A stretch of 10,776 nucleotides of DNA, taken from contig DUKX01000014.1 in NCBI GenBank assembly GCA_013329085.1, positions 1 to 10,776 of the forward strand, read 5' to 3'. Shown in pieces: positions 1,526-9,000 of this stretch (position 1 is the first letter of the stretch; each line of letters starts with the position of its first letter). The translations under genes were made by a program, and so were the position numbers. The notes beneath the pieces were generated by a model, which was not told the origin of the DNA, did no database searches, and saw only the letters and a program-made list of their open reading frames with translations. Source of the DNA: Methanofastidiosum sp. GTDB taxonomy: Archaea > Methanobacteriota_B > Thermococci > Methanofastidiosales > Methanofastidiosaceae.

Positions 1526-1780
1526 CTACTGATAAAATTTATCTCGTTTACCTATTTTCAGTATATTTATTATATCCTCATTTTCATATATTTCATAAGA
1601 AATTCTAAAGCCGCCTATCCTAATTCTATAAAGATTAGTTTCCCCTTTGATTTTCTTATATGGATAACTATAAGGATTTTCTTTTAAATGATCAATTATT
1701 ATATCTAATTTTTTCTTATTAGATTTAGGAAGATTTTTAATAAAACTAGAAGACTTATGTGTTAAAATTACTCTATACAT
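1526..1780 (-). CDS. RelE/ParE-family toxin
   Basis: The 84-residue product has the compact RelE/ParE layout: an opening strand (MYRVILTHKSSSF), two helices (about 13-34), then a beta-sheet with the family's basic positions in the LYRIRIGGFRISYEI stretch (R52, R54, R59 and Y62), and a final strand IINILKIGKRDKFYQ. Many members are ribosome-dependent mRNA endonucleases and others are gyrase poisons; the sequence does not decide between these. The length is normal and nothing is missing. The ATG sits two bases after the stop of the preceding small gene, on the same strand, which is the usual antitoxin-toxin order and coupling. A T-tract follows the TAG stop. This is one of the three modules in the island that look complete. 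Confidence 0.88.
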   Translation of the reverse strand: MYRVILTHKSSSFIKNLPKSNKKKLDIIIDHLKENPYSYPYKKIKGETNLYRIRIGGFRISYEIYENEDIINILKIGKRDKFYQ

Positions 1781-1782
1781 TT

Positions 1783-1968
1783 TTAGTCACAAAAAGTGTT
1801 TTCATATGTTTCATAGTGTCCATTCTTAATTTCTTCTCTTAATTTTTTAAATTCTTCTTTTTCGGCGTCTGTGATTTCTTCAAATCCTAAAAAATTATCA
1901 ATTTTACTATTGATTTCTTTTAGCATTTCTTCAATGTGGTCCAATTTTTCCATAAGAATGTCTGTCAA
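1783..1968 (-). CDS. Antitoxin partner of the RelE-type toxin
   Basis: The 61-residue acidic protein has an amphipathic, coiled-coil-like N-terminal half (KLDHIEEMLKEINSKIDNF) and a charged C-terminal tail. That shape suits an antitoxin that dimerises and wraps its toxin with the C-terminus. I do not recognise a specific family; the assignment rests on its place two bases before a RelE-type toxin. The start is TTG at 1966-1968. An AGGG ribosome site lies six bases before the TTG but too far from the internal ATG 1951-1953, which favours the TTG start. The gene shares its upstream gap with the divergent broken vapBC pair, with a TATA-like box at 2001-2010 on this strand. Confidence 0.7.
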   Translation of the reverse strand: MTDILMEKLDHIEEMLKEINSKIDNFLGFEEITDAEKEEFKKLREEIKNGHYETYENTFCD

Positions 1969-3786: not shown

Positions 3787-4080
3787 TCAAATATAGATCA
3801 CTTCTTTTAGAATAGTTTCTTTGAGTTCTTTTCGTATATCTTCTTTTGGAACTAAATCCACCCTAATTCCTAATAGTTCGGTTAGATAATTCTCTGCTTT
3901 TATTACACCTAAAAGACTAACAGGCTCCTCAAATTCAACAATAAGATCTATATCGCTTCTTTCTTTAGCATTATTTCTAGCATATGAGCCAAAGATACCT
4001 ATATTCCTAATCTTATATTTAATGAAAAGTTCTTCTCTTTTCTCTTCTATTATTTTTTCAATGTCTGCAACATCCTTCAT
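3787..4080 (-). CDS. Orphan MNT-type nucleotidyltransferase antitoxin
   Basis: This is a second MNT-type protein (97 residues), clearly different from the one at 1072. It has Gly-Ser-Tyr-Ala-Arg at 31-35 and Ser-Asp-Ile-Asp at 42-45 (D43 and D45 as metal ligands), and D75 in GIRVDLV is the third acid. An extra N-terminal helix (1-21) precedes the core. The classic partner, a HEPN toxin, should follow on the minus strand, but only about 85 bases separate this stop from the next gene and they contain no HEPN-like frame. So this is a second MNT antitoxin without a toxin. The catalytic residues are all kept, which argues that it is still used, perhaps on a HEPN protein elsewhere, or that the loss is recent. 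A TATA-like box at 4101-4112 lies 21-32 bases from the ATG; no ribosome site is seen. Confidence 0.88.
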   Translation of the reverse strand: MKDVADIEKIIEEKREELFIKYKIRNIGIFGSYARNNAKERSDIDLIVEFEEPVSLLGVIKAENYLTELLGIRVDLVPKEDIRKELKETILKEVIYI

Positions 4081-4193: not shown

Positions 4194-4343
4194 TTAAGGC
4201 TCTAGACAAAGCTCTATAGCTTCTTTGATGTTATCTATAGCCTCTTCTCTAGTATCCCCTTCTGAAATGCAACTGGGAAGAGAAGGCACAAAAACAGTGA
4301 ATCCACCTTCTTCTTGGGATTCTAACACAACAGTTACTTTCAT
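4194..4343 (-). CDS. Lone HicB-like antitoxin
   Basis: A 49-residue protein runs from the ATG at 4341-4343 to the TAA at 4194-4196. It is a textbook short HicB core: two strands (MKVTVVLESQEEGGFTVFVP), the Leu-Pro-Ser-Cys-Ile-Ser-Glu-Gly-Asp-Thr turn, then the helix EEAIDNIKEAIELCLE. This partly degraded RNase-H-like fold neutralises the HicA mRNA endonuclease in HicAB pairs and is also found alone. No hicA is present on either side: the 3' side has only about 110 bases before the MNT gene and the 5' side leads into repeat copy 1. The protein ends soon after the helix and lacks any DNA-binding extension. It resembles the HicB at 5237 (both contain NIKEAIELCLE), so it may protect against the HicA of that pair or be the survivor of a duplicated module. 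Confidence 0.85.
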   Translation of the reverse strand: MKVTVVLESQEEGGFTVFVPSLPSCISEGDTREEAIDNIKEAIELCLEP

Positions 4344-4394: not shown

Positions 4395-4431
4395 TTTTAG
4401 CCGGCGTTAACAGTAAAAACTACAAAGATTA
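4395..4431 (-). repeat. 37-bp cassette-tail repeat, copy 1
   Basis: This copy matches copy 2 at 34 of 37 positions, with all three mismatches visible by eye. On the coding strand it begins with the TAA stop codon of the RelE-type toxin and then reads TCTTTG, a T5 run and the dyad TGTTAACG. It therefore doubles as the 3' untranslated region of that toxin. The T-run could help to terminate transcription. Confidence 0.85.
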
Positions 4432-4689
4432 GAAAAATTTCTCAAGATCTTTATAAACTGTTTTTCTATGTCCAATCACTAAAAATATCACTTTATCATT
4501 TTCTATTGTATATATAATTCTAAGAACTCCTACTCTCTTTGAACGAATATTTTTAAAGTGCCTAAGGGGCTTTCCTCTTTCTGGGAATTCGCATATTGTA
4601 TCTATCGATTCATCTACTATTTTCTTAATATCTTCATTAAAGCGGACATAAATTGAAGAAAAACTTTTTGTAAAAGATGATTTATACAT
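4429..4689 (-). CDS. RelE/ParE-family toxin of the second pair
   Basis: The product is 86 residues from the ATG at 4687-4689. The opening strand MYKSSFTKSF, two helices (about 10-34), the GKPLRHF turn, basic strands (RSKRVGVLRIIYTIE, with R49, K51, R52 and R57) and the closing IGHRKTVY (72-79) are all typical of RelE-type toxins, which mostly cut mRNA in the ribosome. A longer frame begins at 4713, but those eight extra residues are unlike the family; the shorter start overlaps the antitoxin stop by eight bases (ATGTATAA) and has a GGAAAG ribosome site before it, so I prefer it. The TAA stop is the first codon of repeat copy 1. It is only distantly similar to the RelE-type toxin at 1526, so it is not a recent duplicate. 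Confidence 0.88.
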   Translation of the reverse strand: MYKSSFTKSFSSIYVRFNEDIKKIVDESIDTICEFPERGKPLRHFKNIRSKRVGVLRIIYTIENDKVIFLVIGHRKTVYKDLEKFF

Positions 4690-4882
4690 GTCTTTCTTTC
4701 CAGAGTTTTTCAAGTTCAGATCTATCGACCAACTTTCCTTCCTCTACTTCACTTATGGCATCATTTATGGCTTTTTCCCAATCGGGATTTAGAATTGTTT
4801 CAAGTTCGGCCTGTAATTTTTCTATATCCTCAACAAGCTCATACAAAAACTCTTTTTTAATCTCTATAGTTTCAGATGCCAT
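4682..4882 (-). CDS. Antitoxin of the second RelE-type pair
   Basis: The 66-residue acidic protein is predicted to be almost all helix: an N-terminal charged helix with leucine/isoleucine spacing (FLYELVEDIEKLQAELETI) and a C-terminal part (AINDAISEVEEGKLVDRSELEKLW) that would wrap the toxin. I see no ribbon-helix-helix or AbrB motif, so its DNA-binding mode, if any, is unclear. Its last codons overlap the toxin start by eight bases, giving translational coupling and fixing the pair. The ATG at 4880-4882 has a TATA-like box 29-38 bases upstream. The pair lies between repeat copies 2 (upstream) and 1 (downstream). Confidence 0.8.
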   Translation of the reverse strand: MASETIEIKKEFLYELVEDIEKLQAELETILNPDWEKAINDAISEVEEGKLVDRSELEKLWKERHV

Positions 4883-4910
4883 ACTATCTATCTTCTTTTA
4901 GTTGCTATCT

Positions 4911-4920
4911 TTTATATTAT
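4911..4920 (-). promoter_or_regulatory. TATA-like box of the second RelE-type pair
   Basis: ATAATATAAA on the minus strand lies 29-38 bases before the antitoxin ATG. It falls between repeat copy 2 and the gene, so this module has its own promoter and need not depend on read-through. Confidence 0.4.
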
Positions 4921-4966
4921 TTCCTATTGTTAAATTATTTGCCGTATACTTTGTATTTGACTATAC

Positions 4967-5003
4967 TTTTAGCCAGTGTTAACAGTAAAAACTCCAAAGA
5001 TTA
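4967..5003 (-). repeat. 37-bp cassette-tail repeat, copy 2
   Basis: It is the same element as copy 1 with three substitutions. Read on the minus strand it starts exactly with the TAA stop of hicA, continues TCTTTGGAG, a T5 run and the dyad TGTTAACA, and ends in CTAAAA. Sharing begins at the stop codon although the two toxin genes are unrelated. Confidence 0.85.
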
Positions 5004-5240
5004 TTTTTTAGAATTGTAAAGCTCTATAAATTCTTCTAGCTCAATTTCTAAATCTTCTCTTATAATTTTTCTAAGTAGTCCCTTTGGTAATTCTTTATTA
5101 GAATGAATTGGAACAGTTGTATATTTTCCATCCTCAGATTTAAGTCTGACATGAGATCCTTTAGTTCTTATTATATTGAAACCAATTTTTTCTAAAAAAG
5201 AAACTAGTTCTTTACCACTGATGGGTGGTAATTTTGTCAT
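5001..5240 (-). CDS. hicA: HicA toxin (mRNA interferase)
   Basis: The 79-residue protein shows the whole HicA double-stranded-RNA-binding-like fold: PPISGKELVSFLEKIGF helix, the RTKGSHVRL strand with the catalytic histidine (H30) after Gly-Ser, the TVPIH strand (H46), and the ELPKGLLRKIIRE helix. HicA enzymes cleave mRNA independently of the ribosome and are neutralised by HicB. Length and key residues are normal, so the toxin should be active. The ATG overlaps the stop of hicB by four bases (ATGA), so the order is antitoxin first, opposite to the classic hicA-hicB order. The TAA stop is the first codon of repeat copy 2. Confidence 0.95.
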   Translation of the reverse strand: MTKLPPISGKELVSFLEKIGFNIIRTKGSHVRLKSEDGKYTTVPIHSNKELPKGLLRKIIREDLEIELEEFIELYNSKK

Positions 5241-5419
5241 TGTAATACTTCCAGTTCCCTAAAACCTATGAATTTATTTATATCGTTAGGATTTTGATCT
5301 TCTAAGCAAAGCTCTATTGCTTCTTTGATGTTTTCCATTGCTTCTTCTATAGTTTCTCCATAAGAGTGGCAACCTTTAAGTTGTGGGCAACTTACTATAT
5401 ATACGCCGTCTTCATCCAT
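5237..5419 (-). CDS. hicB: HicB antitoxin with an unusual start
   Basis: From the first ATG (5417-5419) the protein is 60 residues: DEDGVYIVSCPQLKGC, the turn SYGETIEEA, helix MENIKEAIELCLE and a short tail. This ATG would remove the first HicB strand. The same frame continues upstream as LEKLHLPIIIE, which is precisely the missing strand, back to a CTG at 5450-5452; a TAG closes the frame 18 bases further on. No ATG, GTG or TTG lies in that extension. Either translation begins at CTG (71 residues), or one base was lost after the out-of-frame GTG at 5458-5460. A TATA-like box at 5484-5495 would place the transcription start close to 5460, favouring the long form. HicB blocks HicA and often represses its own promoter, though no ribbon-helix-helix tail is seen here. 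Confidence 0.88.
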   Translation of the reverse strand: MDEDGVYIVSCPQLKGCHSYGETIEEAMENIKEAIELCLEDQNPNDINKFIGFRELEVLQ

Positions 5420-5483
5420 CTCAATAATAATTGGAAGATGTAGTTTTTCCAGAGAATCACCTATTTCCTATCTGTTACTGTGG

Positions 5484-5495
5484 ATATAAACTTTT
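5484..5495 (-). promoter_or_regulatory. TATA-like box of the hicBA pair
   Basis: AAGTTTATATCC on the minus strand precedes hicB. A start of transcription about 25 bases on would fall near 5460, only a few bases before the CTG at 5452 but about 40 before the internal ATG. Confidence 0.4.
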
Positions 5496-5515
5496 CTAAT
5501 ACATATTTATCACTA

Positions 5516-5542
5516 TTTTAGCCAGTGTTAACAGCAAAGATT
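5516..5542 (-). repeat. Cassette-tail repeat, copy 3, shortened
   Basis: The first 19 bases (5516-5534) are identical to copy 2. The next nine bases of copy 2 are missing, and the match resumes with CAAAGATT (5535-5542). It lies upstream of the hicBA promoter, where it would be the tail of a further module to the right; no toxin gene remains there. Confidence 0.75.
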
Positions 5543-5577
5543 TCTTAAGAAGTATTTACATTGATAAGCAATAGATG

Positions 5578-5593
5578 CGAAAGCTTTAAATAC
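5578..5593 (+). promoter_or_regulatory. BRE/TATA-type promoter of the VapB-like gene
   Basis: A purine-rich GCGAAAG (BRE-like) is followed directly by CTTTAAATAC, the best archaeal promoter match in the window. Transcription would start near 5615, leaving a leader of some 65 bases before the ATG at 5682. Confidence 0.55.
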
Positions 5594-5652
5594 TATTACC
5601 TATTAATGATAATGATACTAGATAACAGCTTATACATATATATGGCGGAAAC

Positions 5653-5668
5653 TGATAATTATTAATCA
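5653..5668. promoter_or_regulatory. Candidate operator, imperfect palindrome
   Basis: TGATAATTATTAATCA is an imperfect 16-base palindrome between the promoter and the start of a ribbon-helix-helix gene. Such proteins bind short palindromes in their own leader, so autoregulation is plausible. The low complexity of A/T-rich DNA makes chance a real alternative. Confidence 0.3.
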
Positions 5669-5681
5669 TTGGGGTTAATTG

Positions 5682-5813
5682 ATGAAAAGTATAACGATTA
5701 AAGGAATCCCGGATGATCTCTATTTCAAACTCATTGAGTGGAAAGGCCGCATGAAGGCAGAGAACTGGGAGGATTTTCTGGAAAAGATGGTGAAGATGCT
5801 GGAGGAGAGCTGA
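5682..5813 (+). CDS. VapB-like ribbon-helix-helix antitoxin
   Basis: The 43-residue protein MKSITIKGIPDD... has a ribbon strand (residues 2-8), the GIPDDLYFKLIEWKG helix and the NWEDFLEKMVKMLEE helix: a minimal ribbon-helix-helix dimer of the archaeal VapB type, usually paired with a PIN-domain VapC. Base use is visibly richer in G than the toxin-antitoxin genes to its left. The ATG at 5682 has a GGGG ribosome site about seven bases upstream. A VapC should follow with a short overlap, but the next frame (5816) is only 28 codons and has no PIN motif. The gene may be an orphan regulator or the remainder of a VapBC pair; the intact fold suggests that it can still bind DNA. Confidence 0.75.
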   Translation: MKSITIKGIPDDLYFKLIEWKGRMKAENWEDFLEKMVKMLEES

Positions 5814-5815
5814 TT

Positions 5816-5902
5816 ATGAATGTTTCAATTTCTGAAATTATTGATAAATTGTTTCATGATAATGTTTTTATATCGTTTCACATTAGGGAGGTATTAGCTT
5901 GA
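5816..5902 (+). CDS. Tiny reading frame after the VapB-like gene
   Basis: The ATG at 5816 comes two bases after the VapB-like stop and opens a 28-codon frame to TGA 5900-5902. The peptide (MNVSISEIIDKLFHDN...) matches nothing that I know and lacks the Asp of a PIN first strand. It sits where a vapC should begin, so it may be a decayed or replaced start. GGAGG appears only near its end, where it serves the next frame. It could equally be non-coding. Confidence 0.25.
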   Translation: MNVSISEIIDKLFHDNVFISFHIREVLA

Positions 5903-6039
5903 AATATTTTAACGAGGATAATGGACTAAAATATAATGAAATTAATAGAGATAATTACATGATTAACATAAATCATGAGAGAAGTATTATGATAAAAAAA
6001 TTGATCATTTCAAAAAAGGAGGTAGATTTGTTTGAATAA
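5899..6039 (+). CDS. Small reading frame coupled to the surface-protein gene
   Basis: A TTG at 5899 follows a strong ribosome site (AGGGAGGT, 5885-5892) at a good distance. It opens a 46-codon frame whose TAA (6037-6039) overlaps the TTG start of the large gene (6032) by eight bases. The polar, Asn-rich peptide (KYFNEDNGLKYNEI...) has no membrane segment and no family that I recognise. The strong ribosome site and the overlap suggest a translated leader peptide that could couple translation to the surface protein, but composition alone does not prove coding. Confidence 0.35.
   Translation: MKYFNEDNGLKYNEINRDNYMININHERSIMIKKLIISKKEVDLFE
6015..6023 (+). promoter_or_regulatory. Strong ribosome binding site fixing a TTG start
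   Basis: AAAGGAGGT lies eight bases before the TTG at 6032. An earlier TTG at 6028 is in the frame of the small upstream reading frame and is closed by TAA within four codons, so only 6032 can start the large frame near this site. Confidence 0.75.
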
Positions 6040-9000
6040 GAAGATTTTGAGTTTTATATTTGGATCATTATTGATGTTTAGTTTATTTGGGGCAATTGAG
6101 TTTCAGGAGGTTGCTGCACAGAGCTGGAGTGCCACCGTTAAAAGTACGGCTAGTGGAACAGAATACTTTAACAGCGTAAACATGCCTATGACTTTTGAAG
6201 TTAAAGTCACATATACTAGCATTCAATCTGGCAGTGGATTAGATCAAGTTGGCATTCAAGTTCCTGTAGGGTATACTTTAGACAATATCGGCAATCAGCC
6301 ATCTCCACCTTCGGGATGGACCTTAGCGTCTATTGTTGGGCCGCTGATAACATATACTCGTCCAACAGGTGTAACAGGAAGTTCGAATATTACTTTTAAT
6401 GTTAAGCTTTCTGATGCCCCTGCGGGGGACACAGGTCCTACAGGAGATGCTTGGACAATTATTGCTAATGCAGGAGCAGGACCTGGATTGTCTGATTTAT
6501 CTCGAAATACATTTGTAGACAATACTCCTCCAGAATATAAAGTAATCTACAATAAAACACCCAAAATTGATGCTGCAGCACCAGATCCGGCGATACTCAG
6601 TTTAGGCTCAGTCACTATAAGAGTTGAAGCTAATGAGCAATTAGTTGAAAAGCCAACTATTGGCGTTAAACAAATTGGATTATCCTTGTCATCGGTTACT
6701 TCAACTGGAACTATTCCTGGAAATGTTTTCACACGTACTTATACTATTTCTAGTACAAATGGACAGAATGATGGTTTGGCTCAAGTTACTGTATCCGGAA
6801 AAGATAGGGCAGGAAATATTGGAACTGTAATTAACACTACAATAGATGCAACAAACGACGGTAAAGAATTTAGAGTAGACTCTCAATGCGATAAACCATC
6901 ATTAGATTCTCCAGCACAAGGAGCTATCGAAACTTCTTCAAACGTTACCTTCGACTGGGATGCGATAATTGATTTAGCTCAACCTGTAAATTATACGTTA
7001 CAATATTCTACTACTTCTACCTTTACTACTGCTACAACTCAAACTAGAAATACAGATTTAAATTCTTATGCTGCAACAGGTCTCACTGCTGGAACATGGT
7101 ACTGGAGAGTTAGGGCAATAGATGCTTTAGGAAATGATAGTGGATATACAACAACAAGGAGCTTTACAGTGTCTCTTGCATCGAGTGTACCCACTTTTAG
7201 AATTCGTTATCTTAAAACTCCAAAAATAGACTACAACACTACTCCTGATGTCGTTGGTGCAGGCTCAATGCAGATTAGAATTTATGCTTCAGAAGTGTTG
7301 AAAAATAAACCAACAGTCCAAGTAAAGTTACACAACCAAACTACCTGGACTACACTCTCAGTAACTGAATCAGCACCGGCATCTGTTTTCACTGCAACAT
7401 ATAATGTACCAACTGCATCTACAAACAATGGATTGGCGCAAATAACAGTATCTGGAACAAGTATGTCTGATAATGTTGGAACATTAATTAAAGATGCTAA
7501 CTGGAGTGATACTAGAGATAGCAATCCATGTGTACCTAATGAGTTAGATTCTGACGGTGCATTCTTCTATGTAGACACAGCTACGGATTCTCCGAGTTTA
7601 TTCCAACCACAAAATGGACATGTAATACCATTTAACCAAAATGAAGCTAACTTTACATTTTACAAAATAACAGATATATCTGCAGAAAGACCTGCAGATC
7701 CATGCCAGAACAACTGTTTGACATACCATATACAATACTCAACATCTTCCAATTTCACTACAAATGTAGTTACCCAAAGTGTCGATGTTAACGAATCAAC
7801 TGGGGACGGAAAACCTGTTTTCTGTGCCACAGGAACTGATAACTCTTATAACAGATGGGATGTCAAGGTAGATCCATTCCCAAATCTAAGAAGGCACAGA
7901 TCTCAAGCACTTTCAAACGGAACATGGTACTGGAGAGCATGGGCTACAGATAGGCTTGGGAATCAGAGTCCTTATTCAGAAACAAGAACATTTTCAGTTT
8001 CTACAGTAACTCCAAATCTTTTTGCACCCGCTGATCTATCATTATTAACTATAAATAATCCCAGATTACAATGGAAAGATGTATGCTCATCAGTTTGGTA
8101 TAATATAAGACTTTCAAGAAGCAATACTGACTTCTTGGACTATACTTTGTACCCTGATAAGATTGCAGTTAATCAATTCCAAAAAGCAAACGATGCAAAT
8201 AAAACAAACTATATAATGGAGGGATCTACAAAAGTTTGGCTTATCGACTACAACGTCTCAACTTCAACACCTCCTAACCCAGCTATAGGGCACCTTGAAG
8301 ATGGAGTTTGGTACTGGAAAGTTGCATCTAATCTTGACTCTACATCATATTCTCCAGTTTGGAGATTTACAGTTGATTCCACTGGGCCCCCAGCGCCAAA
8401 TCTAATTACATTGACAAATGGTCAAGTAAGTCAAAACAAGAGGCCAGAGTTTACTTGGGCTGCTGTGAGTGATGTTAATAATCTTTCAAATCCAGTTAGA
8501 TATTATATTCAAATATCCGGAAACTCAAGCTTCCCTGATTCAAATATTATTGGAACAAATACTTGGCCAAGTAGTTCTTCATTTGCTTCATGGCAAACAG
8601 TGACATATCAAAGGGGACCTCTAACAGTTACTAACTTTGTTACATCACAAGATTTTCCTGAAACATTATTGACAAATCCAAGTCATGTTTACTATTGGAG
8701 AGTATATGCAGTTGATTCAGCAGGTAATGTAGGATCAAATTCCTTTACAAGAAATTTCCGTGTTAGTACCTCACCACCATTATTATGGGGTGATTTCCCT
8801 GCAGGTTCTACACCATCTCCTCCTGTATGTGAGACTCCATGGCCAACTGGGTGTAAGACAGGAGATGACACAGATAGAGACCAATTAGCACTTGCACTTA
8901 GATCGCCATCAAATGGGTTTACACTTAACTCAAGCAATCCACAACTTGAATGGAGACATTCCAGATGTGACTGTGTTGTAAAAGAGATATCAAGTTATAT

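What the first reader, a model, noticed from the sequence alone, without database searches (positions are those of the whole stretch)
4395..5542. Three-copy 37-bp repeat that tails unrelated toxin genes exactly at their stop codon: a cassette-like toxin-antitoxin array
Copies 1 and 2 (4395-4431, 4967-5003) are identical at 34 of 37 positions, and on the coding strand both begin with the TAA stop of a toxin gene: RelE-type in one case, hicA in the other. Copy 3 (5516-5542) is the same element with a clean nine-base deletion and sits upstream of hicBA. Two unrelated modules of about 550-570 bases in one orientation thus share the same tail, each with its own promoter. This is how mobile gene cassettes look: a unit plus an exchange site. 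The core holds the dyad TGTTAACA and, on the minus strand, a T5 run. Sharing that starts at the stop codon is hard to explain by gene duplication because the proteins are unrelated. It may be a recombination site, or a common terminator or 3' RNA element along which modules were exchanged by homology. The mechanism is inference.
Basis: partly seen in the sequence, partly recalled or inferred. Interest (0 to 1): 0.85.

Follow-up and report, generated by a model that had tools for sequence, protein, structure and literature searches.

The report
Toxin modules swapped between short repeats
In a group of related archaea, one spot beside a surface-protein gene carries small toxin-antitoxin gene pairs that come, go and change order between copies of a 36-base repeat, most likely by ordinary DNA recombination rather than by a dedicated integron-like machine.

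Summary
The repeat is real: three copies (4395-4431, 4967-5003, 5516-5542), beyond chance. The window belongs to the genus of Candidatus Methanofastidiosum. The repeat has 14 copies at one orthologous spot in 7 of 10 genus genomes and none in 51 other genomes. There, toxin-antitoxin units between repeats are gained, lost and permuted: relBE-R-hicBA-R in the window, hicBA-R-relBE-R in G002. Identity drops at both repeat edges when neighbouring modules differ. All 5 relE/hicA genes beside a repeat stop at it. This supports 'unit plus exchange point', but not a dedicated system: the repeat is the left end of a conserved block upstream of a surface-protein operon, lacks a dif-like dyad, does not fold, and no tyrosine recombinase lies on its (mostly short) contigs. 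Nine of 14 copies abut no toxin stop, and hicB holds a second recurrent breakpoint. TA pieces exceed a core locus in identity in 15 of 15 species pairs. Best explanation: one locus where TA units spread by homologous recombination, with the repeat as shared anchor. New variant of a known kind.

The parts
4395..4431 (-). Repeat copy 1; begins (minus strand) with the TAA of the relE/parE-type gene
4967..5003 (-). Repeat copy 2; begins (minus strand) with the TAA of hicA
5516..5542 (-). Repeat copy 3 with a 9-base deletion; flank-adjacent copy, left end of the conserved upstream block
4429..4713 (-). ParE/RelE-superfamily toxin gene of unit 1 (94 aa from a listed TTG)
   Evidence: ParE_toxin 5.9e-10
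4682..4882 (-). Antitoxin-position gene upstream of the relE-type toxin (66 aa, no Pfam match)
   Evidence: role inferred from position
5001..5240 (-). hicA toxin gene of unit 2 (79 aa)
   Evidence: HicA_toxin 4.4e-20
5237..5419 (-). hicB antitoxin gene of unit 2 (60 aa from the listed ATG)
   Evidence: HicB_lk_antitox 3.8e-10
4194..4343 (-). Solo hicB-like gene (49 aa, no hicA beside it) left of copy 1; 83% identical to hicB over 59 nt and 78.5% over 177 nt to an integrase-linked hicB region in G009
3787..4080 (-). Nucleotidyltransferase (MNT-type) gene left of the array; 90.4% identical over 365 bp in G009, 89.4% over 367 bp in G007
5543..6117 (+). Conserved block right of copy 3: upstream region, small ORFs and start of the large surface-type protein; present beside the repeat in 7 of 10 genus genomes
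   Evidence: Pfam on the G002 orthologue of the large protein

Best explanation
The locus is a single hot spot next to a surface-protein operon in the genus of Ca. Methanofastidiosum, where compact TA units pile up and are exchanged. The 36-base repeat is the outer end of the conserved region upstream of that operon. It was copied along with units as they were added. Each relBE or hicBA unit is read away from the operon: repeat, promoter region, antitoxin, toxin, stop codon at the next repeat. The near-identical repeats, the shared upstream block (about 600 bp) and related hicB copies act as anchors for homologous recombination or replication slippage, within an array and with DNA from other species, so units are gained, lost and permuted. 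Shown: repeat-bounded units, permutation, an excess of borders at repeat edges, restriction to one locus in the genomes searched, higher similarity of TA pieces than of one core locus. Inferred: that general recombination does it, that DNA moves between species, how the repeat was first duplicated, and that the repeat doubles as spacer/terminator.
For: Orthologous spot in 7 of 10 genus genomes, each with the repeat beside the conserved block. Structures: G000 solo hicB-R-relBE-R-hicBA-R-flank; G002 MNT/HEPN-R-hicBA-R-relBE-R-flank; G005 hicB'-R-relBE-R-flank; G003 R-vapBC-like-hicB'-R-flank; G007 R-HEPN/MNT-hicB'-R-flank; G001 and G009 hicB'-R-flank. Border test on 14 copies: among copies with different neighbours, identity is 0.50-1.0 at the 36 columns inside the repeat edges and at most 0.50 at 54 of 60 columns outside, highest 0.67. 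Flank-adjacent copies: repeat identity 0.95 without G000 (0.89 with it), 36-base windows starting at +24 and +60 give 0.95 and 0.94, windows wholly to the left 0.58-0.62 (two of the seven have relB, not hicB, on the left). TA pieces against the XerA locus in all 15 pairs of six genomes: higher in 15 of 15, by 3.7-18.3 points, median 8.4; repeat plus flank block higher in 15 of 15, by 4.1-12.8. relBE and hicBA of these kinds match only on the repeat-bearing contigs, save a 56-nt hicB-like match (G009:C171) and a 165-nt relB-like match at a contig start (G004:C130). hicB is also a recurrent breakpoint, as expected if any homology serves.
Against: Homology of 36 bases is short for general recombination. 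The toxin stop falls at the repeat in 5 of 5 relE/hicA cases beside a repeat, which homology alone does not require. Within-genome copies are not significantly more alike than between-genome copies (826 of 5000 permutations reach the observed difference), so concerted evolution is not shown. No two strains of one species were available. The core comparison rests on one locus, plus mtnA for G002, and local alignment favours the better-conserved pieces of the TA part; strong conservation without transfer could explain the flank block.
Confidence: 0.55

Rival explanations
1. The repeat is a cis-regulatory or termination element (operator upstream of each TA promoter and of the surface operon, and/or T-rich terminator after each toxin), kept by selection; module shuffling is secondary.
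For: The flank-adjacent copy is about as conserved as the region next to it. On the minus strand a T5 run lies about 10 nt after the toxin stop in 4 of the 5 relE/hicA copies. TGTTAACA is in 9 of 14 copies and copy 2 has two tandem CAGTNNNAA words (by eye).
Against: It is kept beside the flank in all 7 loci, where no toxin gene ends. Copies G000_3, G003_1 and G005_1 carry deletions. No other gene in the 10 genus genomes was found with a copy, apart from the one 3-mismatch match.
Confidence: 0.2
2. The repeat is a true recombination site of an unlinked recombinase (XerA or another tyrosine recombinase), so the units are integron-like or dif-module-like cassettes.
For: Same orientation of all 14 copies, unit-plus-repeat anatomy, toxin stop at the repeat, permuted order, tyrosine recombinases in 10 of 10 genomes. 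Acinetobacter plasmids shuffle TA-carrying modules between pdif sites (PMC13141974, passages).
Against: Best 11-bp arms match at 6 of 11; 422 of 500 shuffles do as well. No fold. No tyrosine recombinase on the repeat-bearing contigs. No second locus in the genus genomes and no exact match in viral contigs. hicB breakpoints lie outside the repeat. Serine recombinases were not searched.
Confidence: 0.15
3. Units were inserted with duplication of a 36-base target at the flank edge (transposase- or Cas1-like integration at a leader end).
For: The repeat is the left end of a conserved flank block, and units sit between repeat and flank as a leader-end insertion would leave them.
Against: No transposase noticed by eye among the listed ORFs; neither transposases nor cas genes were searched for. 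Units of about 510-1,225 bp with shared homologies are explained without it.
Confidence: 0.07

Closest known systems
dif (pdif) modules of Acinetobacter plasmids
   Same: TA pairs as compact units between short sites; order and content shuffled between relatives (PMC13141974, passages).
   Different: There: XerC/XerD sites (28 bp, recalled) on plasmids, sites in both orientations. Here: no dyad found, one chromosomal-type locus, one orientation, no recombinase link.
Integron cassette arrays, including archaeal integrons
   Same: Arrays of short genes in one orientation interspersed with a shared element (PMC9668308, passages); TA cassettes with their own promoters are known in integrons (recalled).
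   Different: Archaeal integrons were called by IntI and/or clusters of folding attC sites (PMC9668308). Here the element is 36 bp, does not fold, and no tyrosine recombinase is linked; that paper's main text has 0 occurrences of 'Methanofastidios'.
TA islands exchanged by homologous recombination between conserved flanks (general kind, recalled)
   Same: One conserved position with variable cargo of relBE, hicBA, HEPN/MNT and vapBC-like genes, TA pieces more similar between species than one core locus.
   Different: Here internal unit borders, not only the outer flanks, coincide with copies of the flank's own edge.

Membership tests
Integron | attC sites that fold as single strands | tested here: not met
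   Three strands/copies folded as DNA: -0.1 kcal/mol each, 173-187 of 200 shuffles at least as good
Integron | linked integron integrase IntI | tested here: not met
   No PF00589 match on any of the 7 repeat-bearing contigs; contigs are incomplete and the IntI-specific domain was not searched
Integron | cassette = gene plus site, same orientation, gained and lost as units | tested here: met
   Unit differences between genomes with an excess of borders at the repeat; the vapBC-like genes of G003 lie in the other orientation
Xer/dif or pdif module | two 11-bp imperfect inverted arms around a short spacer | tested here: not met
   Best 6 of 11 with spacers 4-8; 422 of 500 shuffles as good
Xer/dif or pdif module | Xer-type recombinase present in the cell | tested here: met
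   Tyrosine recombinases in 10 of 10 genomes; that one of them is XerA is inferred from size and score, no phylogeny made
Xer/dif or pdif module | recombination between sites shown | not testable with these tools
   needs an experiment
TA hot spot exchanged by homologous recombination | conserved flank with variable TA cargo at one position | tested here: met
   7 of 10 genus genomes; the other three uninformative or not covered
TA hot spot exchanged by homologous recombination | cargo transferred between species | tested here: inconclusive
   TA pieces more similar than one core locus in 15 of 15 pairs; one core locus, local alignment bias
Type II TA modules | toxin of a known family with antitoxin gene beside it | tested here: met
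   HicA/HicB and ParE_toxin Pfam matches; the relB-position protein has no Pfam match

The most novel reading that the evidence does not exclude
The 36-base element is a native attachment site of an unidentified recombinase, and this spot is an archaeal TA-capture platform that works like an integron without attC hairpins or IntI, with new units entering next to the surface-protein operon.
Probability: 0.12. Interest if true: 0.85.

Novelty: new variant of a known kind. Interest (0 to 1): 0.5.

Why it matters
It gives a clear natural case, in uncultured archaea, of unrelated toxin-antitoxin pairs behaving as interchangeable units whose borders are set by a short piece of a neighbouring operon's upstream region. 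It would show how TA islands can be built and shuffled without an integrase, and gives a defined place to look for recombination in metagenomic strain data.

Tried and rejected
Canonical archaeal dif: a dif-like core at up to 1 mismatch matched in 9 of 10 genus genomes; the reversed-pattern control was lower in 7 genomes and higher in 3. A longer pattern, based partly on a recalled Pyrococcus dif, gave 0 of 10. The genus's own dif was not located, so 'the repeat is not dif' rests on its lack of dyad only.

RNA or single-stranded DNA structure of the repeat: none. Viral contigs: 0 stretches for an exact 18-base pattern. The same pattern in genome contigs: 6 stretches, 2 of them Ca. Methanofastidiosum, 4 in unrelated bacteria; my arithmetic gives about 7 expected by chance, so the 4 are taken as chance and were not examined.

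Absence in G004, G006 and G008 is not informative: a G004 contig starts inside a relB-like remnant and a G008 contig starts before the array; G006 is 68% complete.

Concerted evolution of copies: not significant. G007's two copies share two private changes and two of G002's share one, which is not a test.

G000 is not in that comparison.

Literature searches for such an archaeal TA array (listings only) and passages of PMC9668308, PMC2958812 and PMC13141974 showed none; the library lacks most subscription journals.

Full report
Observation. The three copies exist as described; the ORFs give the TAA of a ParE/RelE-type toxin at copy 1 and the TAA of hicA at copy 2. Copy 3 is a 27-base form with a 9-base deletion; G001, the best match to the window in this region (92.8% over 829 bp), keeps the full form, and the deleted piece lies between CAAA words (by eye).

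Where it is. A 25-base pattern at up to 3 mismatches hits 7 of 61 genomes, all in the window's genus (7 of 10), none of the 51 outside it. Of its 12 places 11 are at the orthologous spot; the twelfth (G005:C39, 3 mismatches) lies on another contig and I take it as chance. A looser search of the fetched loci adds three diverged copies, 14 in all. A profile built from those 14 finds them again, by construction, and no further copy in the 7 loci (next E-value 1.7) or in 5 other fetched stretches (best 0.57).

Anatomy. The right neighbour is constant: a conserved block leading to a large surface-type protein (Pfam on the G002 orthologue: carboxypeptidase-regulatory-like and PEGA domains). The repeat is the left end of this block: identity over the repeat 0.95 without G000, 0.89 with it; the 36-base windows starting at +24 and +60 give 0.95 and 0.94; windows wholly to the left give 0.58-0.62, where two of the seven have relB and not hicB. 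Left of it are TA genes. G000: solo hicB-R-relBE-R-hicBA-R. G002: MNT/HEPN-R-hicBA-R-relBE-R. G005: hicB'-R-relBE-R. G003: R-small protein, PIN toxin (vapBC-like), hicB'-R. G007: R-HEPN/MNT, hicB'-R. G001 and G009: hicB'-R. That makes 7 repeat-bounded units in 5 genomes, of 4 kinds, and two genomes without a bounded unit. relBE and hicBA units are read away from the operon; the vapBC-like genes of G003 lie the other way.

Borders. Among copies whose left or right module differs, identity is 0.50-1.0 at the 36 columns examined just inside the edges, and at most 0.50 at 54 of 60 columns outside, highest 0.67. The right edge is sharp at GATT; at the left the first three T's are already weaker (0.66-0.69). 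Of 64 alignment ends (BLAST pieces of at least 150 bp between the 7 loci, both ends inside the TA region), 18 lie within 6 nt of a repeat edge, against a random mean of 2.2 and maximum of 8 in 5000 draws. These ends are not independent, since one event gives several. By my reading of the same list, 16 of the 64 lie instead in or beside the 3' part of hicB, a second recurrent breakpoint; in G000, G001 and G009 the neighbour there is the end, or a remnant of the end, of a HEPN gene (remnants by eye). Recombination between hicB copies could turn a G000-like array into the short G001/G009 forms; that is inference.

Stop codons. All five relE/hicA tails beside a repeat have their TAA at its edge. 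The other nine copies abut no recognisable toxin gene on that side: 7 are beside the flank; G003_1 and G007_1 are beside other sequence, although G007_1 also shows a TAA at that place. A 32-base hicA tail remnant in G003 has no recognisable repeat beside it. At the other side of G002_1 a HEPN gene read towards the repeat stops 3 bases before it. So the rule is true of the two module types next to a repeat, not of the element. The relE-type gene is interrupted in G002 and G005 by the ORF lists.

Similarity between species. For all 15 pairs of the six genomes with a XerA-type locus and a repeat locus in hand, alignable TA pieces are more similar than the XerA locus in 15 of 15, by 3.7-18.3 points (median 8.4), for example G003-G005 91.7 against 76.9% and G007-G009 91.0 against 76.1%; the repeat plus flank block is higher in 15 of 15, by 4.1-12.8. 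mtnA gives 81-84% between G002 and G000, G001, G003 and G005. This suggests transfer between species. Against that: one core locus, local alignment picks the better pieces, and the flank block may simply be well conserved.

Mechanism. A dedicated site is possible but not supported: no dyad, no fold, no tyrosine recombinase on the repeat-bearing contigs although all 10 genomes have some, no second locus. Homologous recombination or slippage on the repeat, the upstream block and hicB fits the borders seen. How the repeat was first duplicated, and why toxin stops fall on it, stay open; a compact terminator/spacer role is my guess. Published relatives are Acinetobacter dif modules (PMC13141974), archaeal integrons (PMC9668308) and archaeal dif (PMC2958812), each read as passages only. 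The locus meets the anatomy of cassette arrays but not the defining sites of either family.

Verdict. Real, informative, probably not a new recombination machine. Interest 0.5; novelty: new variant of a known kind.

Noticed in passing
L079 (G009:C171) 616-2068: A hicBA pair (both Pfam-supported) directly beside a tyrosine integrase gene; its hicB region is 78.5% identical over 177 nt to the window's solo hicB region, and no repeat copy was found on this contig. TA pairs of this genus may also travel with integrases.
   Followed up: partly
window 5817-5884; G001:C35:11554-11618; G004:C89:17281-17348: A 65-70 bp stretch with several GTTTCA/TGAAAC words and a TATA-like box recurs at other places in two genomes, in front of what looks like another gene start; possibly a shared operator-promoter.
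   Followed up: partly
window 5682-5810: A 43-aa ORF in the conserved block reads like a ribbon-helix-helix protein by eye; Pfam gave no match.
   Followed up: no
window 1526-1968: A second ParE-type toxin gene (Pfam 2.4e-9) with a small upstream gene, without a repeat copy beside it.
   Followed up: no
L024 8963-10258: In G003 the vapBC-like genes lie in the opposite orientation to the hicB remnant inside one repeat-bounded unit, with a 32-base hicA tail remnant between them.
   Followed up: partly
G000:C10:1197-1216; G001:C77; G003:C16; G004:C25; G005:C87: The same dif-like palindromic 20-mer core recurs once each in five genus genomes; it could be the genus's dif or part of a conserved gene.
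   Followed up: no
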